Source of the DNA: Bolinopsis microptera
Taxonomy: Eukaryota; Ctenophora; Tentaculata; Lobata; Bolinopsidae
DNA: 64,000 bases
Assembly (NCBI RefSeq): GCF_026151205.1
Contig: NC_087072.1
Location: 21,046,103 to 21,110,102 of the forward strand
Direction: 5' to 3'
The notes below the pieces were generated by a model. That model did no database searches and had not been told where the DNA came from. It saw only the letters and a program-made list of their open reading frames with translations. Below are positions 4,567-61,651 of the stretch, piece after piece; position 1 is the stretch's first letter; the number at the start of each line of letters is the position of its first letter. The translations under genes and the position numbers were made by a program.

Positions 4567-4812
4567 TCTTGGGTACATCCTCAGCCTTATATATCTTAAC
4601 AGTGTAAGTAGCAGGCTGCAGCTGCACTCCAGCAGGTCTCAGCAGGTTGCTCTCAATATCAACCAGATCATCACTGGATGAGGACTTGGGAGGGATCTTC
4701 AGCTTGTCTCCGGGTCCCAGGATTGAGATGGAGATCTTGACATAACCCTTTGCCCCGGACTCCTTGTCCTCTGGGTCTGTTAACAGTACCCACTTGTGTA
4801 CGAACTGGTGAT
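4567..4812 (-). CDS. Ferlin FerI domain and start of C2C
   Basis: The 246-bp exon (phase 1 to 1; acceptor CCTCAG, donor A|GTAAGT) encodes HQFVHKWVLLTDPEDKESGA followed by KGYVKISISILGPGD. This is the core of FerI. It continues with DIESNLLRPAGVQLQPATYT and the first strand of C2C (VKIYKAEDVPKS). The match to ferlins is strong across the whole exon. Confidence 0.97.
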
Positions 4813-5561: not shown

Positions 5562-5693
5562 CTCGTCCCACAGAGGCTTGTTGGTAGATTTCTGGACTCT
5601 AGTGTGTTTAGATTGCTTCCCCACGTGGATATTACAAACTGGGTGGATGTTTCCTCCCAGCAGTTTCCTGCCCTCGTGTATATTAACTCTGAC
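5562..5693 (-). CDS. Ferlin C2B, first exon
   Basis: The 44-codon exon (phase 0 to 0; acceptor CGCAG, donor GAG|GTCAGT) encodes VRVNIHEGRKLLGGNIHPVC and then SKHTRVQKSTNKPLWDE. It matches the ferlin C2B pattern VxVxEGRxLxGxNIxPV. As is usual for this domain, the loop carries Asn-Ile-His-Pro instead of the Asp-Pro of a Ca2+ site. Confidence 0.95.
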
Positions 5694-6151: not shown

Positions 6152-6218
6152 CTGGAAGTCTTGCTTTTTGGTCGAGAGTTTAGAACGATCAATGCTAGAT
6201 CGTGGAGCTGCTATTACA
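6152..6218 (-). CDS. Ferlin shared exon before C2B
   Basis: The 67-bp exon enters in phase 2 and leaves in phase 0 (acceptor TTTCAG, donor CAG|GTAAAA). It encodes VIAAPRSSIDRSKLSTKKQD followed by FQ. The KxQDFQ end matches the KPQDFQ that precedes C2B in vertebrate dysferlin. Four upstream exons (15313, 11364, 7537, 6699) end in the phase this exon needs. Confidence 0.9.
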
Positions 6219-7536: not shown

Positions 7537-7877
7537 TTGCCGTAGTAGCGGTGGTCATTCTTGAAGATCTTCTTGATCTTGTGCTTCAGGGGCAGGTTTT
7601 CAGGGTTCATGGGTAGATTTCTCTTCTGGTTCTTCATTGACTCCATGTACTCCTTATAAGCCCTCTTTCCTCCCAGCCTTTTCTCCTTAGCTGGCACCAC
7701 AACAGTTTTCCCATCTTTATCCTTCCCTTTCTTATCTTTGGGGTCTAAGAGCTCGTCCTCGTAGAGGTACTCATCATCATCATCATAGTCGTCATCATCC
7801 ATGATGTCCCCCGGGTCATCCACCTCCAGGGTGTAGTCATCAAACGTCACCTCACTCCGACTTATCTTATCACTCAT
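7537..7877 (-). CDS. Ferlin alternative first exon (acidic, C2A-less start)
   Basis: The exon encodes 113 residues starting MSDKISRSEVTFDDYTLEVD, then a run of Asp, a KDKKGKDKDGK segment and a basic end (LKHKIKKIFKNDHRYYG). A TAG lies in frame immediately before the ATG, although that TAG could also be an acceptor. The donor AA|GTACGT leaves phase 2, matching the acceptor at 6218. A shorter 5' UTR intron is possible at the TTTAACAG just upstream. The product would be a ferlin starting directly at the C2B linker. Confidence 0.65.
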
Positions 7878-11363: not shown

Positions 11364-11727
11364 CTATCCACAGGCTTGGAGGGACGGTTAGGAGCCCCCG
11401 GCACAGCTATTTTCTCATCTGATATCCCTTCTTTAGACTTGGCGGGAGATTTCCCTGATTTACCTTCCTTTGCACGTGCAGGTGTGTCACGTGTCCCGGC
11501 ACGTTCAGTAGTATCACGAATATCTGGGTTTGTAGGTTGGTCGAACAAGTCCTCATCATCCATGATGTCTTGTCCGTATCTTGCCTTTCCCGTATGGATA
11601 TTGCCCATGGAGATGGAGCGTACCTTCTTCCCCTTCTTATTCATCTTACTGGGAGCCCCGGGGGACCGCTTACTACCGCGAGAAGACAGGTCCCCCAGCT
11701 CCAACAGTGATGACTCGTACCCCGCCA
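11364..11727 (-). CDS. Ferlin alternative linker exon (phase-equivalent to the 15.4-kb exon)
   Basis: This is an open block of about 121 codons, basic and probably disordered, containing RSISMGNIHTGKARYGQDIM and repeated AKEGKSGKS-type motifs. With acceptor GAGCAG at 11728 it enters in phase 1, and with donor TAG|GTCAGC it leaves in phase 2. Those are the same phases as exon 15313-15415, so the two could replace each other but could not be used in series. The acceptor has no good pyrimidine tract. The first in-frame ATG is internal (11644, MNKKGKKVRS), so a start there is the alternative reading. Confidence 0.5.
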
Positions 11728-18267: not shown

Positions 18268-18334
18268 CTTCTTCCATCTCCTCATCAGGGTCAAGAGTTG
18301 GTTTAGTGTATTCCAAATAGAGGTTCAATCGACT
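18268..18334 (-). CDS. Ferlin shared exon (last strand of C2A and linker)
   Basis: The 67-bp exon goes from phase 0 to phase 1 (acceptor TTTCAG, donor AAG|GTAAGC). It encodes SRLNLYLEYTKP, which fits the final C2A strand, followed by an acidic tail (DPDEEMEE). It can be joined from the C2A exon ending at 21182 or from alternative first exon 4a, both in phase 0. Confidence 0.88.
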
Positions 18335-18441: not shown

Positions 18442-18741
18442 CTGTTCGTCTAATGAAAGGTCAGGCTCCTTATGATGCAACCTCTTTGCCAGACTGAGCT
18501 TCCTTACAGAGGAGCCCCTCCTAGCTCCCTTATCTACTGCCTCATCCTCAGAACCCCGCTCCAGCTTATGTTTGGTCAGTCTCCTAGTAGCTCTCTTTAC
18601 CAAGCCCCCCTTACTGTCCCCCTCCTGCTCCTCCTGCTCCCTGATAAGATACAGCTCGTCCAGATAGGCCTGCTCGTTGGAGGGAGACGGGACGGGTGCC
18701 CCTGAGAAACGTTCCGCCAGAGATGCTTTACGCTTTGACAT
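18442..18741 (-). CDS. Ferlin alternative first exon 4a (C2A-less start, charged)
   Basis: The exon encodes exactly 100 codons starting MSKRKASLAERFSGAPVPSP. A TGA lies in frame five codons upstream, so this is a protein start. The product is highly charged and probably disordered, with repeats of the KASLAERF / KLSLAKRL type at its two ends. The donor CAG|GTGTGA is weak but leaves phase 0, which fits the acceptor at 18334 only 107 bp downstream. It would start a ferlin with no C2A apart from that domain's last strand. No homology is recognised for the leader itself. Confidence 0.65.
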
Positions 18742-21181: not shown

Positions 21182-21281
21182 CTCTCCAACTTTACCGTCT
21201 CTGTCTCTGAGTGGTACAGTAGCCTCTTGTGCTCCTAACCTAACCAAATCTTTCAGAGGGTAAACTGCTTCGCCCAGTAAC
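21182..21281 (-). CDS. Ferlin shared C2A exon (LLGEAVYPLKDL)
   Basis: The 100-bp exon enters in phase 2 and leaves in phase 0 (acceptor TTATAG, donor GAG|GTGAGC). It encodes LLGEAVYPLKDLVRLGAQEA and then RDRDGKVGE, matching the LGEAxVPLxxL strand of dysferlin C2A and the hairpin before its last strand. It lies 8.1 kb from the previous exon, across an intron full of repeats. Confidence 0.92.
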
Positions 21282-29386: not shown

Positions 29387-29475
29387 TTGTTTTTGAGGAT
29401 CTTCTCATAATCATAGACCTTTATCAAGAGCATACTCTCTTCTGTCAGAGGCCTGTACCTCTTCCATGTAAACGT
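29387..29475 (-). CDS. Ferlin shared C2A exon (central strands)
   Basis: The 89-bp exon goes from phase 0 to phase 2 (acceptor CCACAG, donor AA|GTTAGT). It encodes TFTWKRYRPL, a short linker, then SMLLIKVYDYEKILKN. This matches the F-x-W strand and the central LxIxVYDY strand of ferlin C2A. Confidence 0.92.
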
Positions 29476-29682: not shown

Positions 29683-29738
29683 CTCGTTCCATTCCGGGTT
29701 AAGCTCACTGTGTATAACACGTGTTGTTCTCTTGATTC
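29683..29738 (-). CDS. Ferlin shared C2A exon (strand after loop 1; RVIHSELNPEWNE)
   Basis: The 56-bp exon enters in phase 1 (acceptor TTTCAG) and leaves in phase 0 (donor GAG|GTGAGA). It encodes IKRTTRVIHSELNPEWNE, the C2 segment ending in the conserved N-P-x-W-N-E. I found no second exon of this kind anywhere in the window, so all five half-C2A first exons appear to need this one. Confidence 0.92.
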
Positions 29739-30030: not shown

Positions 30031-30217
30031 CTTCTAAATCTAGTAAGACATGAGGGTCGCTGTAACCAAAACGCTCTACGTTTTGGAGATTTTGAGCATT
30101 CCTGACCAGAACTTGGACTATCCCCTCTTTACTCATAACCTCATTATATTCCCGGTAACTGGAGATATGATCGTCATCTTCCGAGGATCCGTACCGTCCC
30201 AAAAACGGGCCGAACAT
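30031..30217 (-). CDS. Ferlin alternative first exon 1e (N-terminus and first half of C2A)
   Basis: The exon encodes 62 residues starting MFGPFLGRYGSSEDDDHISS, then a C2 first strand (GIVQVLVRNAQNLQ), loop 1 and SDPHVLLDLE. The donor AAG|GTAAGT is near-consensus and leaves phase 1. A TAA directly precedes the ATG in frame, so translation starts here. In loop 1 the first acidic position is Glu rather than Asp and the second is the SDP aspartate. This is the first exon nearest the shared C2A exons, about 290 bp upstream of them. A 14-bp minisatellite lies just 5' of it. Confidence 0.85.
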
Positions 30218-30471
30218 TTACAATATCACATACAAAACGGTGCACAACGGAGAAAATATTAAACTAATAAATAGGCGGGCTGAGAGTAAAGTATAAGTAA
30301 GCTGGAAGTTTCAAAACCACATTGTCTATTCATAAGTTAATAAAGCTACTCTGTAGCCACGGCTGCAGGAAATGCCAGGCCCGAAACTACTGAGGTGGAA
30401 GCTAAAAAAATGCACTATTATGTAATTAAGAGTAGTTTATTGGTTACAGTAAGCATGGAGGGTGCGTTCTT

Positions 30472-30985
30472 GGTGGGGCTACTGTGAAGGGGCTACTGTA
30501 AGGGGCTACTGTAAGGGGGCTACTGTAAGGGGGTTACTGTAAGGGGGCTACTGTAAGGGGGCTACTGTAAGGGGGCTTCTGTAAGGTGGCTACTGTAAGG
30601 GGGCTACTGTAAGGGGGCTACTGTAAGGGGGCTACTGTAAGGGGGATACTGTAAGGGGGCTACTGTAAGGGGGCTATTGTGGGGCTACTGTAAGGGCGCT
30701 ACTGTAAGGGGGCAATTGTAAGGGGGCTATTGTAAGGGGGCTATTGTGGGGCTACTGTAAGGGCGCTACTGTAAGGGGGCTACTGTAAGGGGGCTACTGT
30801 AAGGGGCTACTGTAAGGGGGCTACTGTAAGGTGGCTACTGTAAGGTGGCTACTGTAAGGGGGCTACTGTAAGGGGGATACTGTAAGGGGGCTACTGTAAG
30901 GGGGCTACTGCAAGGGGGCTATTGTAAGGGGGCTATTGTAAGGGGGCTATTGTGGGGCTACTGTAAGGGCGCTACTGTAAGGAAA
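30472..30985. repeat. 14-bp minisatellite GGGGGCTACTGTAA
   Basis: About thirty-six variable copies (GGGCTATTGT, GGGCGCTACTGT and others), with blocks that recur as larger duplications. The array begins about 255 bp upstream of the ATG of ferlin first exon 1e and so lies in its presumed promoter region. Confidence 0.95.
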
Positions 30986-31773
30986 TGGGGAGGGTAGATG
31001 GGGCTACTTGTTGGGAAGGCAGTGCACATTGCACACTAAGGTCATGGTCATCGGGAGACCTTGAACAATATAGAAACCTTCCTTAAATTATTGAATAAAA
31101 GTGAAAAACTGGAGATAGTAAAACCAAGTTTAATCCTCCCGGATCACTTCTACGAAAAATGAGGATGATAAAAAAGAAGCAGTAATGAAGATTGAAAGAG
31201 ACGGGAGGAAGGATTTTCACAATAGAAGATGGGAAGAGTCAGATGTCTACTGTAATCCCAGCAGCAGATCTCAGACTTAAATACGCAGATTACTAACTAA
31301 TTCCGCTGAATTAGAAACTTAGAATAATTTAGGACAATAGAATATTATAATTGCATTCGATGCCAAAATACGCTGAACCAACGTCGAAAATGAAACGGCT
31401 CTGAAGAAGAATAAACATTGACAGTCTACCACTTATTTCTATCTGACTGAGACGAAGTTTAATTCATTTTTGATTTGTAGACCATAGGTCTCAACAATCT
31501 GGTTCATATGAAGCAAGCTATTATAACTATAAATGAACGGCAGGAGAATAGGACGTGGAGAAGTAGCGCAATACTCCACTGATAAGGTTGGCACACAACA
31601 AAAGCGAGGCCACCAACAAGCTTCATTACACGGTGCTGACACACGTCTCTTACACTCACTGTCTACTGTCTAGGGTTCTGATTGTTAAATATATATATAA
31701 ACCTGCTGATGATCACCAATAATGGTGTGGTCGTGAGCTGAAAGCTAATTCCTAATCTAGTGATCAGTGTACA

Positions 31774-31808
31774 GCACACACACACCCACACACCCACACA
31801 CCCACACG
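31774..31808. repeat. CACACCCA simple repeat
   Basis: Short CA/CCCA microsatellite upstream of first exon 1e. Confidence 0.85.
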
Positions 31809-32715
31809 CTCAGATAATTATATGGGACGAAGTGCAGTGGGTCAATTTGGCACGTGCACTGTATTTCACTGCAGGTATTTGCACGTGGACAATGTCTCAA
31901 TGTAAGCATTTGCAGATGCATTTTCATACAATAAAATGAGGTACCACCTGCGTGAAGATTGCTGAAGAAGTACCTGTTTTTACTTATAAGTATAAATACG
32001 CTAATACTTCTGTACAATTGGCCAACGCGTTTATTTTAAGAAGACGTGAGTTACTGAGTGGAGCGTATTTATATTTTATTCTTCGTTCAAGTTCGTTCAA
32101 AGGGGCTTATGATAAGAGATATTGGCTGAGATTACAGCGAAGTTTTGACCTTAAGTTTTTTAGGGAAAGATTAGACATGGCAGTTGTTTTTACTATGCCT
32201 TGTTTAGAACTTTTAAAAGGTATTTAACTAAAGGGAGGTTACCTCGTTTATCAGGTCCTCGTTAAAAGGTATTCACTAACTTTACTCGTTATAACCGAAA
32301 AAGAATACTGTCTGTCAGCTTTACAATTTACATCAATACTTTTAAGACTTTAAAAAGCTGAAGTAACTAAAAAATGCAAATTTACTAATCGATGATCCCA
32401 AAGTGTGCCATTTCAGTTAATTACACAAGAACCAATACAACAACAATTTGAAAACGAGTTCCGTATGCAATGCTGGATTGCGAAATGTGGGTGAGGTCTT
32501 ACTGTCTAAAGCAAATGACAACCATTTAAATCATAATAACAATTAGGGGGCTAAGCATCACGTCAGATACTTTACATGAATATTGAATACTCATCTTACT
32601 TACTTATCTCGTTACAAAATACTCTTCTAAAGGCTCCTCACTGAACTCTCCTTAACACCAACAATCTAATTGTAATGCTGATCCTCATAAAACGCACAGG
32701 TTACACTCTTCTTAC

Positions 32716-32881
32716 ACTCTGAACTGAGCCAGTCCAGGTCCCCTTTAGTGTGGACAAAGCAACAATAAGCCAACTCAAAGAAAAGAGCCGAGCCTCTGGT
32801 GTCAGGGTCCAGGGACAAATAGGGGATAGGAGCGAAAAGGAGCGGGTGATAATAAAGAGGCACTGCTTGGGCATTCACCAT
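32716..32881 (-). CDS. Possible further first exon or small ORF, unrecognised
   Basis: The ORF starts MVNAQAVPLYYHPLLFAPIP and runs to a stop just left of 32666 (about 72 residues). If spliced at the GTAAGA donor after 32716 it would leave phase 1, the phase needed by the shared C2A exon at 29738. It lies between first exons 1d and 1e. It does not look like the start of a C2 domain, and phase agreement alone has a one-in-three chance. Function unknown. Confidence 0.2.
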
Positions 32882-33737
32882 TTTAGAAATACTCGGCCCT
32901 GGAAACAACTCCACGTGTCCGTCATGTGACCAACAAGAAGAAACTTCCAGACAGCAGATGCAGATGCAATTTCCAGACCCAATCAGAAGATGACATGGAG
33001 TTGTTGAAAGGAAAAATACCGGCCCAGAAACATGCCAACCAGAGAGGACCCTATCGTTTGTAGAGGTCTCTTCTTCGACGCTGGTACATCCGACTCAGAG
33101 TCTCCGAGCCGTCTTTCTTAACAACAGCAGCTTGGTTGACTAAACACCTAGTCTTTAATGTGCACTGTGCAGAATAGAATAAACCCTATTGCACGTCACA
33201 AGATTGTAAGATTGGCTCGCCGGGGAGGGTTCACACTAAATCCAGGGTCAATCAGGTAGGGTATCATTCAATACTTCAATAGTGTAGTCATTGGTCCGTA
33301 GGTGCTTACTCTGCTATGCATGAGCATTTTGTGAGTTATGCAGTTTATCTTGCAAAACTGTCTCTCAAAAAGTCGTTACCATGCAGGCTTCTAACGTGGC
33401 CGCCTCCCGCGTAGCGCGGGACGATTGTTCCAATGATGGCAAAACAAGACAAGAGTAGAATTAGGGTACGTGAAGTTAGCAACAGGAAAAACGAATGGCA
33501 CCTCCCCCGCGATTGTTAACCACCATTTAGTAGTTGTAGCCTAGCGGGCACTGTTTGTAACTAGTTGTCATTGTGATTAGAGCAGGGGGGAGAATAGCAA
33601 CACTGCGCTTACAGAGTCGCCCAATGACAGACATTGTTACCGAAGAATGGAGCAAAATCACAAATTACACAAACACGCACATAATCTCTAAGCTGCTTCT
33701 GTTGTGTGATTATATAACAGGTCACTAAAGTTATTTA

Positions 33738-34091
33738 GGAGGAGGAGGAGGAAGAGGAGGAGGAGGAGGAGGAGGAGGAGGAGGAGGAGGAGGAGGAGGA
33801 GGAGGAGGAGGAAGAGGGAGGAGGAGGAGAAGAGGGGAGGAGGGGGAGAAGAAGGGGGAGGAAGAGGGAGGAGGAGGAGGAGGAGGAAGAGAAAGAGGGA
33901 GGAGGAGGAAGAGAAAGAGGGAGGAGGAGGAGGAGGAGGAGGAGGAGGAGGAGGAGGAGGAGGAGGAGGAGGAGGAGGAGGAGGAGGAGGAGGAGGAGGA
34001 GGAGGAGGAGGAGGAGGAGGAGGAGGAGGAGGAGGAGGAGGAGGAGGAGGAGGAGGAGGAGGAGGAGGAGGAGGAGGAGGAGGAGGAGGAC
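33738..34091. repeat. (GGA)n microsatellite, 354 bp
   Basis: Nearly pure trinucleotide repeat with a less regular first third (GAAGAGGGAGGA). Poly-Ser, poly-Leu and poly-Pro frames across it are artefacts. Confidence 0.97.
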
Positions 34092-35315
34092 TGAGGAGGG
34101 GTGTGCACTGTACCTCACTTTAGTAGCAAACACGCTACTAATCACGAGCGATAAGATTGGGGTGCAGCTGAGACACACTATCATCTGATAAGGTGTAGCA
34201 ATAGTAGGTGCTAATACTGATCATAACTTCACTACTCTCACTACACATGCTTGGAATGCCATCACAATTATTATTATAGATGCAATGTTTCGAATCAGCT
34301 CCACATTGGAATGGTATTCCTATCATCTTATCGGAATCTAATCCACGTGGGTATTATAATTCCTGGCGGAAGGGACACCTTCTCGATGTCAGCTTCATTT
34401 CAGTACTGTCTTAGGAGAGCTTCTCAGCGAGCAGGATGGTTGGTCGGTGGAAATTAAACATATCATAGGAAACTCAGACCATCATAGATCTCATTAATAT
34501 AATATACAACCTGTTTACTTGTACAGGTTGAGATGGGACTAACAAATCAATCGGATGTAAGAAAAACTGTGACGTGTATTTTAAATAGGGCAGGGTATTT
34601 TAAAAGGGTGTGGCGCATGAGTAAGAGCAAATAATCAAACACGTACTTTGGGACTGATTCCGCTCTGTTGCGTTCTCTGAACTGATTTAAAACCATTAAA
34701 TAATTAACGAATTAACTAATTAGATGATTAGACCCTACTCGGGGGCTGATCTCAATATAATTAACAACAGTAGTAGGTGCTACCATCTACATACTGCACC
34801 TAGGCCTAGGGTAATATTTATTGTACTCCTCTTAATCTTCGTAGACTTACTGACTTTAAAACATTCTCGGCAAACAAGAGATAAAAGGAATTTTAGAGGT
34901 GGTCAGTATCATACAAATATTCTAAAACCTATAGTCAATAGTATAATTAACAATTTCAACCTTAGAACGTTGTGAATATGACCGATCTGGTAAAGTTTGC
35001 TTACACGTTCTGTCTAACCCAAAAACTAACGACTGAACGTCTAGTTCTGCCTGAACTAACGTATGATGATGGGGCCAGAGTAAGAGTCGAGAGCACATGA
35101 GTTCTAGCATGGATGTTACTGGTTTCCCCAATCATATAGTACTGTAAAATTCTGGTTACGTGTGCCTGCCCTAACTAGTCCGAATATTTACCCGGCCTGA
35201 ACAATTTTCTGTATAATTTTTGGAATTACAACTCCTTTGAACCACTATACTACCACTATACCACTACCTGCAACTTCATTTTGAATTTAAATGACTGGAG
35301 AATTGTAAAACTAAC

Positions 35316-35535
35316 CGTCAAGTTGAATAACGACGAAAGGGTCGGGCAGTCCGAATGTTTTAAGGATAGCCTCGCCAGGACCCATACAAGTAGCATTCCT
35401 CACATGAACTATCACATAATTCAGATCTTCTGGCATATTCTTCACAACCACCTCCTTCTCCTGGAACCCTTTATCCTCCACTTGGGCGCTGGACGGGTGA
35501 TCATGTGGCCCTGCACTTGACCTTCTGTCGCTCAT
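35316..35535 (-). CDS. Ferlin alternative first exon 1d (N-terminus and first half of C2A)
   Basis: The exon encodes 73 residues starting MSDRRSSAGPHDHPSSAQ, then a C2 first strand (LNYVIVHVRNATCM), an extended loop and PDPFVVIQLD. The donor G|GTTAGT leaves phase 1. A TAA sits in frame nine codons upstream with no AG between it and the ATG, so this cannot be an internal coding exon and must begin a protein. The DPFV aspartate is kept, but the loop before it is longer than usual and has no clear first aspartate. Confidence 0.85.
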
Positions 35536-35990
35536 AATCCGAACAAAACAACAACGATATTAAGAAAGTTAGGGGCTGGGGCACGCTATTTTGGGGCTAG
35601 GTTACAGTTACAGTTGCTTCATTTCCGAGTTGATAGCGGATTGTCCCACTTTATACAAGCTACCTAGCTCAGGAGTGGTTAGCCCAGTATGGAAACCACA
35701 TATATTACTTCTCCAGGAAGAGGTTAATCACCTATTAGTGACCACTAAAACTTTCTGGTGATCGGCTTAAAAATTACACGACATGGTAATTTTTAACAGA
35801 TAGCATTTATTAATTCAGTACAACAATAATTGCTCGCTGATTCATGATCACGTGACAGCAATTTATCAGTAGATCTTGGAGTTTTACTGATGATAACCTT
35901 TATAAGAGCATCTTAGGTCCAATTACTCACTTACCAGATTACAATGAACAGTTACAATCAGTTGGATCAGAAGGTTAACACCACACTTAC

Positions 35991-36198
35991 GTTCGTGTGA
36001 GATCCCAGAGAGCTGGATGAAGATAGTGCCTCCACACCGGTAAGCTCCACTTCTCCACAGCTCCGAGTTAGGATCTAAGTGCCAGTTTATAACTGTGACA
36101 TTAAGTCTGCCGTGATTAAGTCTGCCGTGTATCCCGGAGGCGTGTCGTCTCCGTCCAGCAGGACGGCTTACTCCTAACTTCTGCACGAACCTATCCAT
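35991..36198 (-). CDS. Ferlin alternative first exon 1c (divergent first half of C2A)
   Basis: The exon encodes 69 residues starting MDRFVQKLGVSRPAGRRRHA. It has a basic leader, then a first strand (RLNVTVINW), a long loop and a strand GGTIFIQLSG. The donor C|GTAAGT is strong and leaves phase 1. A 15-bp tandem duplication inside the exon gives the doubled HGRLN. The sequence is the most divergent of the five and lacks DPFV and the loop-1 aspartates. The call rests on the strand pattern, the shared phase and the position in the series. Confidence 0.65.
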
Positions 36199-36469
36199 TA
36201 TATCAGGACATGGGACAATTGTAAACTAAATTTCGAGTAGAAAGTAAGGACACTGCATACATTGTGCATTCTGCACGGGTATGCTGGAAACTTCTGAGAT
36301 ATCTTGTTACGGCTCGGTACCGGAGCAATGCTGATGGTGAGTAGCTTGGAATGGGTACAGAACGAGGGGCAAAGTCTTAGTTCCTGTATCCTGCCCATTG
36401 TACATCCGAAGTAATATAAGTCGATATCCTATCTAGAACTATCCTAGAACAAAGCTCACTTATAGGAGA

Positions 36470-36847
36470 AGCTCTGCCGTTTTCTGACAAAAATTTTAAG
36501 TAATATTTTTGAAATTTTTGATTTTTTGTCTAAAATTTGACCAATGGTTTCAACGGGTCATTTTCATCAGAAGATGGAATTTCTGCCGATGTGGCTGTAC
36601 TACTACTTAAGCACTTTTCTATCAAATTCAAATTCAAATTTGTAATTTTTAGGCACTTTCCCAGAAATTAGGATGAAACCTTTTCATAAGTCTCAAAAGT
36701 CAACAAAACACCTTTACTTAGAAACATAGTGGGTGCAGTTTAAATTTGACACCAGCTAGTCCAGAGCAGAATTGAAATCTTTAAAGTCAATTTGCACAAA
36801 GTGACCCTTAGTGTACTTAAGCACTTTTGTCAGAAAACGGCAGAGCT
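36470..36847. mobile_element. 378-bp MITE with 23-bp perfect inverted ends
   Basis: AGCTCTGCCGTTTTCTGACA(AAA) at 36470-36492 is inverted at 36825-36847. A subterminal TACTTAAGCACTTTT occurs at about 36604 and 36815. A 3-bp AGA on each side may be the target duplication. It lies about 270 bp upstream of ferlin first exon 1c. Confidence 0.75.
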
Positions 36848-36849
36848 AG

Positions 36850-39800
36850 AGTTTTGAGTATCGGGTAGGATATATCAAAGAAAGCTAGACTCCACCAATT
36901 CCAAGCAATATCTAGGTGGATTGACGCATGGATCCAACACTGAAGATTTGACTTTGAAGATCCAACTTCAATGAACCCTCTATTTTTGACCTTGATATGT
37001 CTGGGAATCTGACTCTAGAAGTTGATCCTGGTCACTTAACTTGAAACAGTTTATAACCAACTCCGTGTAAAAGTGTTAAAGTGTAAAAGTTTGTCCAAAA
37101 CTTCTCTTCAAAACCAGAACAGATGACTGAGTATTGTTTAGAGATCTGAATTTTAATTTCAATACATCTTAAATAGTGGTAAAATTTAACTTGAGTTGTA
37201 ATATAATGATTGGTGCCTCTTAAAAATACGTTATGAGTACATGATTTAGAATCTAATGGCTGAATAGTTAGTTAGTGGAATGTAATACGTGAAATTGGAA
37301 GCAGAGAAATTTTGCAACAACAATCACTCTCTCTCTCTCAACAATCACATCTGAGTACTTGCTTCTTTGTTAGGACTGTGCTAACAAGCTTACTTCCTTC
37401 AGGCATAAAATGTATTCAACAACACAAAAAACTGTCGCTAATGTGGCTTCTCAAGCTTTCTTGCGAACGTTTATTTATTAGATTGTATAAGTTTAGCAAC
37501 TGGTGCAATGATTGCTGCCACCAACGTAGACTTCTAATGCGGAATCAACAGACCGAGTCACCATGGTAACGTGGTAGACGTATTACTATTAGTCTTTCCC
37601 CAGATTCCTCAGACACTTAAACAGACAAAGTAAACGCTTTCAAAGAAGTATTTTCAAATTAGATCGCAAGTGTATAATAAAGCCTTGCGGACGAGGAATA
37701 TACCATTCCCCCCATATTCAACAACAAATAAAGCATTGAAAAGCAATCACGAGCAGTCACATGTACCCTCTCATCAATAAGAGCAGTAAAAGTTCAATCT
37801 CACTGCCCGGAAGTTGCTCGCAATTAAGAGCTCACAAGAGGGGAAGCTCCCATTTATGGGGGCCAACAACAAGTATAATACTGCTCTCTCTCTCTCCCCA
37901 CTCTTTCTCCCCTCTCAGTCTCTCCCCTCTAACAATTCCTTCACCTATTGGTATCTTAATTATTAACCACCGGCAACTCTTCATTATCTTAGTAGATCTT
38001 TATGTATTCGCTATTCATAAGCATTGAAAGGAGAGCCATTTACACTACATTTATATCGATTTTAGAAAGATTAGCAAACATGGTTTAAACTCTGCGAACC
38101 CTACCAAGGTAGGTAGCAGGGTGCTAATGTGTTGCCAAGTGCCATCTTGCCAGGAAATTAACCTTAAAATTATTTAAGACTGGTGAAGGAAGCGACCTTG
38201 CCAATTTGGAGCTAGGTGATTTTCTGAACACTATCGACCTTCCAGGAGAACGTATAAATTGTGACGATATATAATGATGAAAAGGCTATCTCCAAGACGA
38301 AGATGCTTCAAAGAATTGATTTTGGGAAAACAGCAAGTAAAACTAGGAAATTGCTCCTGTTACATAGGTCACTGAGTGAAGATGTGAGGTGGCCTCTCAA
38401 TGAAAGATGTTTGAATTCTGAAACAAAGTCGCCTCCTCACAACTCACAATGCACTAGACAACCACATAGCGACCTCACTTCCTCATTATCTTTACTTTGT
38501 TCTAGTAAGTAAAAAGATCCAGTTAGACCAACTTAATTCCTCTTAGTTAATGACGGCCGGCTAAAGGATCTGAAGATTAATGTCACTGGATGCAAGGTGT
38601 GGTCGCAAATAAACCACATTTCTTTTAAAAGAGAGCTTTCTGACATGTCAGAACATGGAATGATGGAATTGCCAGATTATTCATTTCTCTGGAAATGGAA
38701 GAGATTTGTAAGTTTACTGCTGACCCTCTTGGTAAAATAAACATGGTAGTCTGTATAAATCTGGAATAGCAGTGGAAACAACGGGTTAACAACTAAGAGT
38801 TTCATGCCAAAGCAATTGTCAGTGTTTAAGAACTGCTAAAACTACTAAAACTAAAAATTGAAGATATTCTTAGAATATTCCTAAAAGTTCTAGAATGGGC
38901 ATTTCTTCATAAATATGGAATTATATAGTACTGAATATTGCCTTGCAACATATAATGCTTTGTTCCTGTATGTTTACGGGGAAAAATGCCAAGGCAATCT
39001 TATTTGAAGATGATCCAGCCTGCTTAGGAAAGCAACTTGACAGTTGACATACATGTCAGCGATGTGGGCCCATTGCTGTCTTGAGCTTCACTAGAGGAGT
39101 TATAAGCAGACAACTCTCTGTTTGAATTGACGAATCTTAGAGAAAACCGTCCGAATTGGGGCCTTTAGGTGCATATTCAGGGGCTGGTAAAACAATGGTA
39201 TATAAAGGTGTCGGGCGTCTGCGAGAAAACAGATAGATCATGATACCAAATTACGGGAGACAAGGTTAGCCATGTTTGAAATTCTAGTTAAGATTGAAGA
39301 GCAGCCAACAACTACTCCTCAACCTGTAATAATATTAGTTATGACATGGGCAGCAGTATGTTTATTGGTTCATAACAATTCCATCCTAGGTTCTAATTAG
39401 TGATTTGATAAAAAAAGGTCAACATGACAAGAACAGTAGCTGAAGCCTGAATTACGAAAAGTAAATGTCAGCAACGTCAGCACAAGATAGATCACTATCA
39501 GGAAGTAGTGATAAAAACTTAATAAACCAAAATTTAGTCTTATATTTCCACTATACCACCGGTCTAACGTTGTATTGTCTAATAGCGAATACAACCGCTG
39601 GGGTGATATCCTTGATTGGTCCAAAATAACTCTGGCTTAATGTGAGCCACAATCACATACCAAGTTCAGCACAAAATATAGAAGAAAAAACAAAAAACAC
39701 ACGCAAAAGTGAGATCTGTGATACTTCTAGCACCCTTTCGCAGATCCCAGCAGGTGGTTGAGAAATAACGAAGACTAATGAATAAGATTTGCGGTAGTGT

Positions 39801-40670
39801 CCTTGCTTTAATCGCAATTAGCAGCTCCAAAATGCAGCTAAACACTGGACATGGGGGAGAGATCTGTCTATAGTGGGGATAATCAGGGGTAGGCTGAGAT
39901 AATGTAACCTAACAGGATCCGGAGTAGACATTTTTAATTAAACGATAAAGATCGAGGAAATGGAGCTGCTTTAACCAAGGATTAATAACAAACCTAATCT
40001 AGATTCATGCGATATATTTCAACATCCTGACCTTTAATTGGTACCTAAGGGTCAATATCATGGCCTAGGTTAAGTAAACCAAAGATTTTCAACTCACATA
40101 CGGGCTAACCATTTAGAAACCTCTGCAATGCCTAGATTTATGGATGCATGAGGATTTGAAAGTTTATGACAGAAAAAGAAGAATGATCGTAAAACGCGAT
40201 AAAAACATCAACGAAGTGTAATTAATACCTTCACTTCAAAAGTGATTTTAGGAGCTGTAATTGAGGAGCTGCATTTTCGGAGCTTCAAATATTATATTTT
40301 CCTTTTTCCCGTGAGAGGGAAAAATTGACTGGTAGTGCTTTCTTTGGTATCAGGTGTGCCAGAAAACTTTGAGAAGTGGCTCAAGGTAAGTACCTATTAC
40401 ACGAAATAGGGAGAGAAGACTGGAAGTGAAAGTATAAACACCAAAAAGACACCTTATTACCAGACATAGCACATTCCAAGGCAGCGTCTACAAATCAGAA
40501 ATATTTTCCATTGGCGAGACTCCCGTCTAGTAGCTGGGTTACGACCAGGATTATTAGAGTAAAATAAAAGCCGAGATTATTCCGCAATTAACTTGGCTAA
40601 GGTTCCACAAGACAAATCAAACGGTACAACAGGAAGCACTGATTTTAAGCTAGAGTGAAGTTACCTGGCT
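36850..40670. other. Region between first exons 1b and 1c, no feature seen
   Basis: Contains short TC runs at about 37324 and 37880 and AT-rich unique sequence. No C2-like half-exon was recognised on the minus strand. Confidence 0.45.
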
Positions 40671-40675
40671 CTCAC

Positions 40676-40928
40676 CTGAATACTCCACCTCCACGAAGCG
40701 ATGTGCGGGACCGGAAACAAGCGGAAGTGACACTGCCTTCCTCACCCTCACTGAAATTTGCCCAGGACGGCCACTAGGATTGAACTGCTGAAGATCAGGT
40801 TCCTGTGTTGGTGCTAGTGGGTTCCTCCTCTCCTTCTCCCTTTCTTCCGTCTTCCTGTCCTTCTTGGAGCTCATCTCCATTGCTGCATCCTCCGAGTTGG
40901 CGGACAGGAACCTAGACGCTATCGTCAT
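40676..40928 (-). CDS. Ferlin alternative first exon 1b (N-terminus and first half of C2A)
   Basis: The exon encodes 84 residues from an ATG that has an in-frame TAG upstream. The first 50 or so residues are a charged low-complexity leader (SSKKDRKTEEREKERR), followed by a C2 first strand (GQISVRVRKAVSLP) and the strand FVEVEYSG. The donor CAG|GTGAGA leaves phase 1, matching the acceptor at 29738. The usual DP(F/Y)V is replaced by HRFV and both loop-1 aspartate positions are missing, so Ca2+ binding by this face is unlikely. Confidence 0.78.
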
Positions 40929-42513
40929 GTGACGAGAACTCAGCAACACAAACCGGCAGAACTATGGTACGATTTGAAACAATCACCCTGCACCAGGTCC
41001 TTATATCAATATTTTTCCAATCAAAGCTAGCAGGGTAGTAACAGATGTCAAGACCTGACGTGCATTGGGCGGCCGATTGTTGGTTGCCAGCTCATTGGTC
41101 AGCTCCTGAGCACCTGACCCGACCACGTGCGTACTGTTATTATATTATACCTTCGTAATCGCTATTCACCAAAGCCACTACTTTATATATTTTGCTCTCA
41201 TAATCAACTGATAAACAGGTCCCTTATTGGTGCGGGCTATTTCGCCTAATCTTGGCAATAGTTCCACCCTTTTCTCCGTACACAGCGCGGAGATGACTCA
41301 CCATTAACAGGACCTAATGTGTGGTAGCTAGCAGTAATCACGTGACTCTGGTGGACAGGTGTGCGAGTATGTCAACTGTGAGGATGTTAAGCTACCCCGT
41401 TGCTTGTTTATCAGAGAGCTATCTGTCGATTAGAGCTAGCTGAGTAGCTGACACGCCCTTCAACAAGTACACTAATCCAATAATTATTCTGCTCCTTCAT
41501 CAACACATCTGCTCCTTCATCAACACAACCATTCGTCCCCAAGATCAGTGGCCCGGTATCATTTATAATCAGTTGCCAGGCCAGACGGGGAGTGATTAAT
41601 AATCAGGCCTATTTCCAATCCTGGCTGTACAATCGGTAATCTCATTCAGAGAACAATAGGGTCAGAGTAGCAGTATTGTCAGAGTCGTCCCGAGCTCATC
41701 AAACTGAGGAGGCAGTACACGGTGCGGTGTGGGAGAAAATTACTAAATCTTCTCCGTGACATGGTGAAAAGTGTGCCGTTGGACGAAGGAGTTACTGTAA
41801 CAGCTGTAACATTAAAGGGCTGGGTTTTGGTTACAGCGCTGTTAGGTGAAATTAACGGAGGGATCGCTTTGACAGTGGTTCAGCAAGAATTTGGAAACGA
41901 TATTTTATTCTAATAGTAATCCATTAATTAAATAAACTGTGGATTAATCCTCAGCTTCATTCAAAATGAGGTTATGGAACATGAATTGGAAGATTAAAAA
42001 AGTTACTAGGTAAAAATGCAAAGGACTGATGACTATTGACATCTCTAATGACCAAGTGACCGGTCTCATAGATAACAAGGGTATCTATAGATATAAATAT
42101 ATAATGAGGATGGGTTTTAAACCGTTTTTTGCCTTTACTTTAGGTAGAACGTGAAGGAAATGTCAAAATATCGCCGGATGATGAATATCCATGTAAGCAA
42201 GACATGATAATAAGCGAATAAAGTTACTAATGATCATGACAAAGCCCTTATATATTGCTTTCTATCATCAGCTAGGGAAGTGGAAAATACGTTATTCGAC
42301 ATGACGTGCTCATGTTCACAAATCAATCAGGATTGGCAAACAAACATCAGGATATCACGAGAAAAAACAAGAATAGTTCATGATCTCGCTATGTCTACCA
42401 CTTAAAAGCGATTAACGTTGTAGCTCTACAAGGTCTGTCCAAGAAAGTGTTACACCAGAAAATTGGTAAGAGCAAACACTTACAACTACAAGTGTTATAG
42501 GCAGTATGACATC

Positions 42514-42894
42514 AAGAAAGCAATACAATCATAGCAACGTGTTTACAGACGTTAAGTATTTGAAGTAAACTTTTCCATCAAAACAAGGCAGGGGTATTTT
42601 ACATCAGAACAACTTGATCCATAAAGTACTTCTACTGTTAACACTTAAACGTACTTTTAATGTTTTAGTCACACACTAAAGCTCTGAGATTAAACTAGGG
42701 AAAAGAAAGCAATACAATCATAGCAACGTGTTTACAGACGTTAAGTATTTGAAGTAAACTTTTCCATCAAAACAAGGCAGGGGTATTTTACATCAGAACA
42801 ACTTGATCCATAAAGTACCTCTACTGTTAACACTTAAACGTACTTTTAATGTTTTAGTCACACACTAAAGCTCTGAGATTAAACTAGGGAAAAG
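42514..42894. repeat. 189-bp tandem duplication
   Basis: Two copies (starting at 42514 and 42703) differ by a single base that I could see (TACTTCTACT against TACCTCTACT), so the duplication is recent. Non-coding. Confidence 0.93.
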
Positions 42895-43734
42895 ATGAAA
42901 GAAACATGTTTAAAATGAGCATGAAAGTAACATGTAAAAAGGCTGGATTTTGAGAGGAACCTTTCGAAATTGTTGGAACTCAGTTTCTAATTTCCTACCT
43001 TCCTAATAATAACGAAAGGTTGTCGCTATTTGACCTTTTATAACAGTCAAGAAATAGCGACAGACCACTGATGGGTTTGGTAGTTTCAGTTTACAATTAT
43101 ATTGAAAACAAGCCTGGCTCTCAGTGGTAAAAGTGATAAACATACTCGCATAATGTTGCGCAAAACTTAATAGTAAACTGTTCTGAAGAACAACCAACTG
43201 ACCTGATGGTTCATTGGAAAGCTATAAAGGGAGCAGTTTTTCATATTAATCTCCCATCCGAGATTAATAACAACACGAGGAGGCCGAGGGTAAGGCGAGT
43301 TATATAATATGAATTGGAATAATCATAGAATAACTGACGGATAAGGGCCAATGAAGGTCGGAGCCGTCAGTACCACGGGACCTAATTGGGCAAAGTGTCC
43401 GCTAATGTAACTAATACATCCTGGAGGAGCGAGCTGTTACACCAGCAAACAAGGAGCGTGCTGTTACACCAGCAAAAAAAACTGCAAAAAGTAACAGAAA
43501 CAATAGCCCTGATACTTGTCCGAGATTCTGGAAACTGCAAGGTAACAGAAATAAAAGATACTTCTCCGAGATTCCGGAGCCTTGGTATCACCCTTGCAGT
43601 TAACATATTGAATTAGTCACATTTCTGCTCATATAATAGTATAATGCAACGGATGAGACACACAAGAATCGAAGATAGGTTATTTTAATATAAAATAATG
43701 ACGTGATATCTAAAGAACAATATCTCAAAAGTTG

Positions 43735-43792
43735 TAAAATTGAAAGTTGTCAAATTGAAAGTTTTGTCAAATTAAAAGTTGTCAAATGAAGC
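43735..43792. repeat. Short repeat AAAGTTGTCAAATTG
   Basis: Four degenerate copies, just downstream of ferlin first exon 1a. Confidence 0.75.
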
Positions 43793-43974
43793 TCTAATAT
43801 TATAAAATCCTACTCAATGCCTGTTGCAATTTTAAATACCTGAAATCCAGCTGAAGGGAGTGATAATCAGTGATCACCAACTTCATCTGACAACACTTTG
43901 AGTATAATCGAGAGAATTTGTTACTCTCTCACGAGTAAATGAGATACGGCTAATTAAACTAATTTGTCACTGAC

Positions 43975-44122
43975 CGTCGAGCTCGAGATCCACAAATGGG
44001 TCGCTCTCTCCGAGAAGATCTCTGTTAGGAAGTTTTGCAGCAGTCTTAACTTGTATGATCAGACATCCCTCCTGACCCTTAAAGTCGACAGGAGCTCCAG
44101 CAGCTCCGCTTTTCTTACCCAT
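43975..44122 (-). CDS. Ferlin alternative first exon 1a (N-terminus and first half of C2A)
   Basis: The exon encodes 49 residues starting MGKKSGAAGAP, then a C2 start with hydrophobic first strand (GCLIIQVKTAAKLP), loop 1 and DPFVDLELD. The donor is G|GTCAGT in phase 1. Loop 1 keeps both positions that usually hold Ca2+-binding aspartates (the NRD and SDP aspartates), so this version looks Ca2+-competent. The frame stays open upstream of the chosen ATG, and an acceptor-like TGTGTAG lies at about 44151. It could therefore be an internal exon fed from further upstream, and the start is less certain than for the other first exons. Confidence 0.75.
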
Positions 44123-46440: not shown

Positions 46441-48205
46441 ACCCAGGAAAAGGCCCCAGGAGGAGGAGGAGGAGGAGGACTGGGGAGGAGGAGGACTGTT
46501 GAGGACTGATGAGGAGGACTGAGGACGAGGAGGAGGAGTAGGAGGAGGACTGAGGAGGGGAGGAGGAAGAGGACTGGGGGGATCAGGAAGACCCAGGAGG
46601 AGGACCCAGGAGGAGGAGGAGGACTGAGGAGGATGACTCAGGAGGAGGAGAACTCAGGAGGACTGAGAAGGAGGAAGACTGAAGAGTACTGAAGAGTACT
46701 GAGGTCTGAGGAGGATGGCTGAGGAGGATGGCTGAGGAGGATGGCTGAGGAGGATGGCTGAGGAGGATGACTGAGGAGGATGACTGAGGAGGATGACTGA
46801 GAGGGATGACTGAGAGGGAGGAGGAGGATTAGGAAGACCCAGGAGGAGGATCAGGAGGAGGAGGAGGACCTAGAAGGAGGACCTAGGAGGAGGAGGAGGA
46901 GAACTGAGGAGGATGACTCCGGAGGAGGAGGAATCAGGAGGAGGACTGAGGAGGACTGAGAAGGAGGAGGACTGAGGAGGATGGCTGAGGAGGATGGCTG
47001 AGGAGGATGACTGAGAGGGAGGAGGAGGAGGAAGAAGAGGAGAAGGACTGAGGAGGAGAAGGAGGACCCAGGAGGAAGAGGACCCAGGAGGACCCAGGAG
47101 AAGGAGGACCCAGGAGGAGGACCCAGGAAAAGGCCCCAGGAGGAGGAGGAGGACTGGGGAGGAGGAGGACTGTTGAGGACTGATGAGGAGAACTGAGGAC
47201 GAGGAGGAGGAGTAGGAGGAGGACTGAGGAGGGGAGGAGGAAGAGGACTGGGGAGGATCAGGAAGACCCAGGAGGAGGAGGAGGAGGACCCCGGAGGAGG
47301 AGGAGGAGGAGGACCCAGGAGGAGGAGGAGGACTGAGGAGGACTGAGGAGGAGGACTGACGATGACTGAGAAGGAGGAGGACTGAGGAGTACTGAGGAGG
47401 ATGGCTGAGGAGGATGGCTGAGGAGGATGGCCGAGGAGGATGACTGAGGAGGATGACTGAGAGGGAGGAGGAGGAGGACTCAGGAGGAGGACTCAGGAGG
47501 AAGAGGAGGAGGAAGACTCAGGAGGAGGACTTAGGAGAAATGAGAAGGAGGACTGAGGAGAACTGAGGAGGAGGAGGAGGAGGAGGAGGACTGAATAGGA
47601 GGAGGAGAAGGAGGGGGACTGGGAGAGGACTGAGGAGGAGGAGGACTGATGAGAAGGATGAGGAGGAGGACTGAGGAGGAGGACTGAGGACCGAGGAGGA
47701 AGAGGAGGAGGATGAAGAGGAGGAGGAGGACCCAGGAGGAGGAGGACTGAGGAGGAGGACTGAGGAGGATGACTGAGGAGGACTGAGGAGGATGACTAAG
47801 AGGGAAGAGGAGGAGGAGGAGGACTCAGGAGGAGGAGGAGGAGGACTGAGGAAGACTGAGAAGGAGGAGGACTGAGGAGGAGGAGGAGGACTGAATATGA
47901 GGAGGAGGAGGGGGACTGGGGGAGGACTGAGGAGGACGGAGGACTGAGGAGGAGGACTGAGGAGGACTGAGGACTGAGGAGGAAGAGGAGGAGGATGAAG
48001 AGGAGGAGGAGGACCCAGGAGGAGGACCCAGGAGGAGGACTCAGGAGGAGGAGGAGGACTGGGGAGGAGGAGGACTGTTGAGGACTGATGAGGAGGACTG
48101 AGGACGAGGAGGAGGAGTAGGAGGAGGACTGAGGAGGGGAGGAGGAAGAGGACTGAGGAAGATCAGGAAGACCCAGGAGGAGGAGGAGGAAGAGTAGGAG
48201 GAGGA
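46441..48205. repeat. Degenerate GGA-rich satellite (AGGAGGACTGAGGAGGA family)
   Basis: About 1.76 kb of purine-rich repeats are built from GGA, GACTGA, GACCCA and GATGGCT modules. Longer blocks recur at about 46448, 47134 and 48040 (for example AGGACTGTTGAGGACTGATG). This indicates higher-order duplication of a unit of several hundred bp. Open frames here are repeat artefacts. Confidence 0.9.
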
Positions 48206-60904: not shown

Positions 60905-61651
60905 CCGTGGCTAAGATTGTAAGAAAAGTCTGGTAGTGATGTGACGACTGGAATGGCGGAATGCAGTATTTGCAGCAAATAAGTTATTGAACACAAAAAA
61001 GTTCAACAACCTCTCACCGTTTTCATTCCTCCCACCAACGCCGTACCTTCCTAAGTTCTTATGAAGGCCACTGTTGTAGTCTTGATCTGACCGTTTACCA
61101 AGTTTTGCATTAAAATCGCCTAGTATTCAGAGTTCATAACGTGCGGGTACATCCACTGCTACTTGAAGTTCACGGTAAAACTTGTCTGTAGCTGCTGGGT
61201 TTGAAAATGTTTTTGGATTGGTTGGGCTGTAACGGTTAACGATGCGCAATTTACAAGGGGGTTTGCAAGCAGATTTTGAAGGAACAAAAAAGTCCATGTA
61301 AACAACACGATCGCTAATCTGATGAAATGAACGGAAGTAATGATTAACACGAGTATTGATAAGAAACCCCAGTCCACCATGGTAACCATCCTTCTGGTCA
61401 AACAAAAGAAGGCGATGATTTCCCGGAAGTCTCAAATCTGAAAACTGACGTACTTTAGTCTCTTGTAATCCAATAACGTCTAAATCATATCTGTCACAGT
61501 CCTGTGCAAGCAGATGTTGCTTGTCTGTTTTTGTCAAACCTCGAACATTCCATGTAGCAAAGCCGAGTAGAGCAATGGTGACAAGGAGCGTAGTGACCTC
61601 TCCAACAGTGATCTTCCACGTAGCAGTATATTTTCTGGTTATAGTAACCAT
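60905..61651 (-). pseudogene. RTE-type LINE endonuclease fragment with in-frame stop
   Basis: The frame carries an endonuclease/exonuclease/phosphatase fold: FATWNVRGLTKTDKQHLL, then DVIGLQETKV, GGLGFLINTRVNHYFR and RIVNRYSPTNPK. A TGA at about 61125-61127 interrupts the frame, which then continues with ILGDFNAKLGKRSDQDYNSG and GGRNENGERLLNFF. It dissolves at about 60905 where the SPDG/NQID end is expected. GDFNAK and NENGERLL point to the RTE clade. The reverse transcriptase is absent. This is a truncated, inactive copy. Confidence 0.85.

What the first reader, a model, noticed from the sequence alone, without database searches (positions are those of the whole stretch)
30031..44122. Five alternative first exons, each encoding a different first half of the ferlin C2A domain
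Exons at 44.1, 40.9, 36.2, 35.5 and 30.2 kb each start with a Met, add a unique 20-55-residue leader and encode C2 strands up to the same point (LELDG, VEYSG, IQLSG, IQLDG, LDLEG). All five end in phase 1. Only one exon with the next C2 segment (RVIHSELNPEWNE) is visible, at 29.7 kb, and it needs phase 1. At least three starts (35.5, 30.2 and 40.9 kb) have in-frame stops upstream. Human dysferlin is known to use two alternative first exons that change C2A. Five is a large expansion of that arrangement, closer to a clustered-first-exon locus, and the leaders ahead of C2A are unusual for ferlins.
Basis: partly seen in the sequence, partly recalled or inferred. Interest (0 to 1): 0.88.

Follow-up and report, generated by a model that had tools for sequence, protein, structure and literature searches.

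The report
Comb-jelly ferlin with swappable start exons
A dysferlin-like gene in a comb jelly appears to have about four interchangeable starting exons, each supplying a different front half for its first calcium-sensing domain, plus two possible starts that skip that domain, whereas human dysferlin is known to use two.

Summary
The exon anatomy is real. The genome (264.65 Mb, largest contig 26.2 Mb) matches the ctenophore Bolinopsis microptera. The gene is one dysferlin-type ferlin on the minus strand. All five candidate first exons sit where stated, end in phase 1 at a GT donor and fit a single exon 2 (29738-29683); searches found no second copy of the C2A second half. Joined to exons 2-4, four (44.1, 30.2, 35.5, 40.9 kb) raise the Pfam C2 score by 26.5, 21.5, 17.3 and 13.4 bits; 19 control frames changed it by -1.1 to +4.8. 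The 36.2 kb exon adds 1.1 bits and is not supported; 40.9 is the weakest of the four. The swap point is the residue at which two human dysferlin C2A forms diverge. Loop-1 ligand positions run from D/D through E/D and K/D to none, predicting graded Ca2+ dependence. Two further ATG exons (18.7 and 7.9 kb) end in the phase of the next ferlin exon and would give forms lacking most or all of C2A. No transcript data or related genomes were available, so promoters, splicing and conservation are inferred. A new variant of a known kind.

The parts
43975..44122 (-). E44.1: candidate first coding exon; MGKK leader plus C2A strands 1-3; loop-1 positions D/D; possibly ancestral, with a possible upstream 5' UTR exon (acceptor AG at 44156-44155)
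   Evidence: Phase 1, donor GTCAGT; C2 81.1 bits with tail vs 54.6; MGKK shared with second ferlin; acceptor
40676..40928 (-). E40.9: alternative first exon; about 55-residue charged leader plus C2A strands; no loop-1 Asp; weakest of the four supported
   Evidence: Phase 1, donor GTGAGA; C2 68.0 bits with tail; in-frame stop 33 nt upstream; 7 of 896 nulls equal or better on the local profile; no PDB hit alone
35991..36198 (-). E36.2: open ATG frame with phase-1 donor; C2 identity not supported
   Evidence: C2 55.7 bits, inside the control range; 120 of 949 nulls as good; ends IQLSG, then 15 nt more before GTAAGT
35316..35535 (-). E35.5: alternative first exon; C2A strands; loop-1 positions K/D, as in human dysferlin 4iqh
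   Evidence: Phase 1, donor GTTAGT; C2 71.9 bits with tail; one match in the genome at E<=1; stop and no AG upstream of ATG
30031..30217 (-). E30.2: alternative first exon; C2A strands; loop-1 positions E/D
   Evidence: Phase 1, donor GTAAGT; C2 76.1 bits with tail; one match in the genome at E<=1; TAA abuts ATG
29683..29738 (-). Exon 2, shared C2A segment IKRTTRVIHSELNPEWNE
   Evidence: Acceptor TATCTTTCAG, phase 1 in, phase 0 out; single copy found
29387..29475 (-). Exon 3, shared C2A
   Evidence: Phase 0 in, phase 2 out
21182..21281 (-). Exon 4, shared C2A
   Evidence: Phase 2 in, phase 0 out
18442..18741 (-). S18.7: candidate alternative first exon (100 aa, basic) ending phase 0, compatible with exon 5; would leave only the last C2A strand
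   Evidence: Stop 12 nt upstream, no AG between; donor GTGTGA scores best in the exon; codon score of its first 43 codons 0.164, in the coding range
18268..18334 (-). Exon 5, last C2A strand and start of linker (SRLNLYLEYTKPTLDPDEEMEE)
   Evidence: Sole candidate returned by a splice-site and pattern scan of the intron; resembles second ferlin DNFLQFKLDYVKPNLDPDEA
11364..11727 (-). Exon 6, linker
   Evidence: Phase 1 in, phase 2 out; weak donor GTCAGC, 1.72
7537..7877 (-). S7.9: candidate alternative first exon (113 aa, acidic then basic) ending phase 2, compatible with exon 7; would skip C2A and linker
   Evidence: TAG abuts ATG; donor GTACGT (2.46) chosen because its phase fits; one GT near the start of the frame scores higher (3.02)
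6152..6218 (-). Exon 7, shared exon just before C2B
   Evidence: Phase 2 in, phase 0 out
5562..5693 (-). Exon 8, C2B
   Evidence: Match to recalled human dysferlin C2B; splice sites read
4625..4780 (-). FerI domain
   Evidence: Pfam FerI 76.3 bits
4087..4248 (-). C2C domain segment
   Evidence: Pfam C2 31.8 bits

Best explanation
This is one dysferlin-type (DysF-containing) ferlin gene of a ctenophore with a cluster of alternative first coding exons. Four exons (44.1, 40.9, 35.5, 30.2 kb; 40.9 the least certain) each supply an ATG, a private leader and strands 1-3 of C2A including calcium-binding loop 1. Each is spliced from phase 1 to the same exon 2, which with exons 3-5 completes the domain. 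Because a first exon need have no acceptor of its own, an upstream transcript would skip those downstream, so choosing a promoter chooses the C2A half (inferred). The halves differ at the two loop-1 Asp positions (D/D, E/D, K/D, none), so the isoforms should range from Ca2+-competent to Ca2+-independent C2A, as human dysferlin does with C2A and C2Av1 (inferred by analogy). Two more start exons (18.7 and 7.9 kb) probably give C2A-less forms (inferred). Shown: reading frames, phases, splice-site sequences, C2 similarity of four exons in context, one shared tail. Inferred: promoters, transcripts, Ca2+ behaviour.
For: C2 gain for four exons against 19 controls. Among 14 ATG-to-donor phase-1 frames of at least 28 aa upstream on the gene's strand, five are these exons and two overlap them. 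One C2A second half found. Stops abut or lie close upstream of the ATGs. PDB sequences of two human dysferlin C2A forms, 4iqh and 4ihb, agree from VKKRT on and differ before it, the same residue boundary (that 4iqh is C2Av1 and 4ihb C2A is recalled). Phase-consistent exons 1-7 into C2B and the rest of a ferlin through a C-terminal membrane segment. Human C2Av1 reported not to bind via calcium (PMC3898210, passages; PMC9333456, passages).
Against: No RNA evidence. Alone, E35.5, E36.2 and E40.9 match no C2 in Pfam or the PDB. Codon scores of E30.2 (-0.009) and E36.2 (-0.025) lie inside the noncoding spread, and E40.9 (0.07) below its 95% point. E40.9 was equalled or beaten by 7 of 896 nulls on the local profile; the E44.1 margin there was small, 13.1 against 11.1. 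Donors of E44.1 and E35.5 score modestly, although shared exon 3 scores lower. E44.1 may be an internal exon behind an upstream exon. No related ctenophore genome could be searched, so conservation is untested.
Confidence: 0.75

Rival explanations
1. E44.1 is the only working first exon; the other C2A-like exons are decaying tandem duplicates that are not transcribed.
For: E44.1 has the best C2 score and codon score and shares MGKK with the second ferlin; E36.2 looks degenerate or unrelated.
Against: The four exons share only 3 to 8 of 16 residues pairwise over the aligned block, yet E40.9, E35.5 and E30.2 keep open frames of 84, 73 and 62 codons, ATGs, donors and the same phase; dead exons so diverged would be expected to carry stops.
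Confidence: 0.14
2. The exons are first exons of separate short genes that happen to sit upstream of the ferlin.
For: They lie up to 14 kb from exon 2 and lack transcript support.
Against: tblastn with six second-half queries (five best places each) on window 29.8 kb to 30 kb beyond the window end gave no hit on the gene's strand below E 0.9; the best hits (E 0.048, 0.060, 0.086) are on the other strand. A genome search found exons 2-4 only here, and Pfam listed no C2 at E<=0.001 in that stretch (capped candidates).
Confidence: 0.04
3. Mutually exclusive internal exons behind one far upstream promoter and 5' UTR exon, rather than separate promoters.
For: E44.1 has a plausible acceptor upstream and the second ferlin has similar anatomy; E40.9 has one AG. 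An acceptor upstream of the in-frame stop would still leave the ATG usable.
Against: For E35.5, E30.2 and E36.2 there is no AG between the in-frame stop and the ATG, so they cannot carry coding sequence in from upstream; this does not exclude a shared noncoding exon.
Confidence: 0.07

Closest known systems
Human dysferlin (DYSF) C2A / C2Av1 alternative exon 1
   Same: Alternative first exon swaps the first half of C2A up to the same residue; the variant is reported not to bind via calcium (passages)
   Different: Two alternatives there; about four here, each with a leader, plus probable C2A-less starts
Drosophila misfire ferlin
   Same: Ferlin with tissue-specific promoters and several predicted isoforms (PMC1853072, abstract and other passages)
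   Different: Its longest testis cDNA is described with C2B-C2F; no clustered C2A half-domain swap in the 12 of 32 places shown
UGT1A locus (recalled, from no call)
   Same: Tandem first exons, each with its own promoter and a variable N-terminal half, spliced to shared exons
   Different: Unrelated protein; more first exons
Second ferlin of the same genome (C1:6229075 onwards, plus strand)
   Same: Ferlin with FerI and DysF-like segments and an MGKK-led N terminus
   Different: The C2A-equivalent front runs through in one exon without the phase-1 intron, so no swap at that point; its C2A scores only 13.9 bits, below the Pfam cut-off

Membership tests
Type-1 (DysF) ferlin | Tandem C2 domains with FerI between C2B and C2C | tested here: met
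   FerI 76.3 bits; C2B and C2C exons flank it
Type-1 (DysF) ferlin | DysF region | tested here: met
   tblastn match to residues 937-1035 of recalled human dysferlin, E 1.6e-20; domain limits recalled
Type-1 (DysF) ferlin | C-terminal C2 domains and transmembrane helix | tested here: met
   tblastn matches up to residue 2068 of recalled human dysferlin
Type-1 (DysF) ferlin | FerB and Ferlin_C Pfam domains | not tested
   Searches did not complete
Alternative-first-exon gene | Each exon has its own ATG and a donor in the phase of the shared acceptor | tested here: met
   5 of 5 in phase 1
Alternative-first-exon gene | Each exon encodes the homologous domain half | tested here: inconclusive
   4 of 5 by Pfam gain; 3 of 5 beat all nulls on the local profile
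Alternative-first-exon gene | Own transcription start and observed junctions | not testable with these tools
   No RNA data
Dysferlin-type C2A/C2Av1 switch | Same swap residue | tested here: met
   4iqh and 4ihb differ before VKKRT and agree after it over the aligned stretch; aligned to G/IKRTT here
Dysferlin-type C2A/C2Av1 switch | Alternatives differ in Ca2+ binding | not testable with these tools
   Only loop-1 residues compared

The most novel reading that the evidence does not exclude
The gene is a promoter-selected set of calcium sensors: six or seven starts give ferlins whose first C2 domain ranges from Ca2+-competent through weakened to Ca2+-independent to absent, and the swap point was already in use in the common ancestor of ctenophores and vertebrates.
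Probability: 0.3. Interest if true: 0.75.

Novelty: new variant of a known kind. Interest (0 to 1): 0.6.

Why it matters
In what I saw, human dysferlin's alternate C2A exon is described from skeletal muscle and blood cells (PMC2923515, passage). The same half-domain swap at the same residue in a ctenophore, with about four versions, would make it either an ancient property of ferlins or a striking convergence. It also offers natural C2A variants with graded loop-1 ligands to test how C2A calcium dependence shapes membrane repair and exocytosis. The literature searches made listed no paper on ctenophore ferlin genes or on more than two C2A first exons: 5 of 5 papers listed; 20 of 103; 20 of 955; 15 of 3,135; 5 of 728; 1 of 1.

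Tried and rejected
Extra C2A first exons: with the full local profile over 1300 phase-1 segments (both strands, window plus 30 kb) nothing outside the known exons scored above 10.0 bits. Separate second-half C2 exons: none convincing. Codon bias as a coding test: too weak to settle E30.2, E36.2 or E40.9. Pfam and PDB on the single exons: too short to decide; E36.2 alone gave only UHRF1 at E about 1. Against my rejection of E36.2: joined to the tail, 2 of 54 PDB rows (phospholipase C zeta, E 2.9e-6 and 5e-6 for the whole query) align from residue 28, inside the exon, and several synaptotagmin rows from 56-62; the ferlin rows begin at 65-81. A longer donor for E36.2 (35935, phase 0) fits exon 3, not exon 2, and gives no C2-like sequence by eye. 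The frame with MDPDELEEDEE near 6.8 kb was considered as another start and dropped for lack of a good donor (by eye). TATA-like words near some exons were seen but not scored. Rfam found nothing in the window at gathering scores. A glutamate receptor against the PDB did not name the species (60 of 488 rows shown); assembly figures in PMC11797021 (passages) served instead. A literature check of the UGT1A analogy returned nothing. On re-checking, confidence in the best explanation was lowered from 0.78 to 0.75, and two rivals were raised slightly.
Full report
Source. The window is C1:21046103-21110102 of a genome of 264,652,675 bases in 232 contigs, with C1 26,206,493 bases long. PMC11797021 (passages) lists Bolinopsis microptera with 265 Mb, 13 chromosomes and a largest chromosome of 26.2 Mb. 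I take the species as B. microptera. The listed scaffold number is 346, not 232, so the match rests on size and largest chromosome.

The gene. Pfam FerI confirms a ferlin at window 4625-4780 with 76.3 bits and lists a single other match in the genome, on C1 near 6.23 Mb. I rebuilt the N-terminal exons: exon 2 29738-29683, exon 3 29475-29387, exon 4 21281-21182, exon 5 18334-18268, exon 6 11727-11364, exon 7 6218-6152 and exon 8 (C2B) 5693-5562. Phases agree throughout (one search placed exon 8 one base off, corrected).

The five first exons. All five are at the stated places, start with ATG and leave phase 1. A list of ATG frames of at least 28 aa ending in phase 1 at GTNAG or GTAA on the gene's strand upstream of exon 2, over 44 kb, has 14 entries: five are these exons and two overlap them.

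Are they C2 halves? I joined each to exons 2-4 and scored Pfam C2. The tail alone has 54.6 bits; with E44.1 81.1, E30.2 76.1, E35.5 71.9, E40.9 68.0, E36.2 55.7. Nineteen control frames from the same region joined the same way gave 53.5 to 59.4: 7 of 7 other upstream frames and 12 of 24 others from the plus strand or downstream. Two of these controls later proved likely exons of this gene, and one overlaps a known ferlin exon, but none is a C2A first half. E36.2 cut at its IQLSG point gave 55.1. On a leave-one-out local profile E44.1, E35.5 and E30.2 beat all null segments (970, 914 and 924 scored; the E44.1 margin was small, 13.1 against 11.1); E40.9 was equalled or beaten by 7 of 896 and E36.2 by 120 of 949. 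In PDB searches with the tail, myoferlin matches begin inside E44.1 and E40.9 but at exon 2 for E36.2, where however two phospholipase C zeta rows reach into the exon. Alone, the exons are too short: Pfam gives 17.5 bits (E44.1) and 12.9 bits (E30.2), below the cut-off, and nothing for the rest; PDB searches of E36.2, E40.9 and E35.5 alone give no C2. So three exons are firm, E40.9 is probable, and E36.2 is unsupported. Codon bias supports E44.1 and E35.5, leans towards E40.9 and is undecided for E30.2 and E36.2.

Start status. In-frame stops precede every one of the five ATGs. No AG lies between stop and ATG for E36.2, E35.5 and E30.2, so these frames cannot be entered from upstream coding sequence; E40.9 has one AG in 33 nt; E44.1 has 72 open nt and a plausible acceptor. 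E44.1 therefore looks like the first coding exon behind a noncoding exon. The second ferlin has similar anatomy and the same four-residue MGKK start, and its C2A-equivalent front runs on in one exon without the phase-1 intron; its C2A scores only 13.9 bits. I infer, weakly, that E44.1 is the ancestral start.

One shared tail. Genome-wide, a C2A query finds exons 2, 3 and 4 once each at high identity (20 matches at E<=1), E35.5 and E30.2 each match only themselves, and tblastn with six second-half queries on 64 kb upstream gives no hit on the gene's strand below E 0.9 (five best places per query).

Same swap point as human dysferlin. PDB sequences 4iqh and 4ihb agree from VKKRT onward and differ before; that they are C2Av1 and C2A is recalled. 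That is the residue where these exons meet exon 2 (LDG, LEG or YSG, then IKRTT). PMC3898210 (passages) reports C2Av1 does not bind via calcium. PMC2923515 (passages) mentions the alternate exon 1. That the human junction is also phase 1 is recalled.

Mechanism. Counting back from the shared Gly, the two loop-1 positions read D/D (E44.1), E/D (E30.2), K/D (E35.5, the same as 4iqh), L/H (E40.9) and S/G (E36.2). Human C2A (P/D) and myoferlin (T/D) by the same count show that the count ignores gaps, so it is a guide only. Loop 3 is in the shared exon 3. Choosing the first exon would therefore set loop 1 while leaving the rest of the protein fixed. Promoter choice is inferred from anatomy.

More starts. 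S18.7 (18741-18442, 100 aa, phase 0) lies 107 nt before exon 5, and S7.9 (7877-7537, 113 aa, phase 2) lies before exon 7. Each has a stop just upstream of ATG with no AG between, and each ends in the phase of the next ferlin exon. The S7.9 donor (GTACGT) was chosen because it fits. They would make ferlins lacking most or all of C2A. Pfam names no domain in either above cut-off.

Verdict. A dysferlin-type ferlin with about four alternative C2A first halves and probably two C2A-less starts: an expansion of an arrangement known from human dysferlin. Literature searches (capped lists) showed no description of it; most subscription papers are not in the library.

Noticed in passing
G000:C1:6229075-6243407 (L018-L020): The only other FerI match of this genome belongs to a ferlin that also has DysF-like segments, so no FerI ferlin without DysF was found.
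   Followed up: partly
30475-30982: A 14-base minisatellite (37 copies, unit GGGGCTACTGTAAG) lies about 260 bases upstream of the E30.2 ATG, in its likely promoter region.
   Followed up: no
33737-34099 and 46458-48205: Long AGG-type simple repeats; the second spans 1.7 kb and begins 2.3 kb upstream of E44.1.
   Followed up: no
42514-42895: A 189-base unit present twice at 99% identity between E40.9 and E44.1.
   Followed up: no
61450-61651: Minus-strand frame with a partial Exo_endo_phos match (24.2 bits, cut-off 24.5), perhaps a retrotransposon fragment.
   Followed up: no
places (L032-L037 and others): 32 matches to the ionotropic glutamate receptor ligand-binding family, 10 of 32 in single open frames of more than 900 codons, as if intronless.
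   Followed up: no
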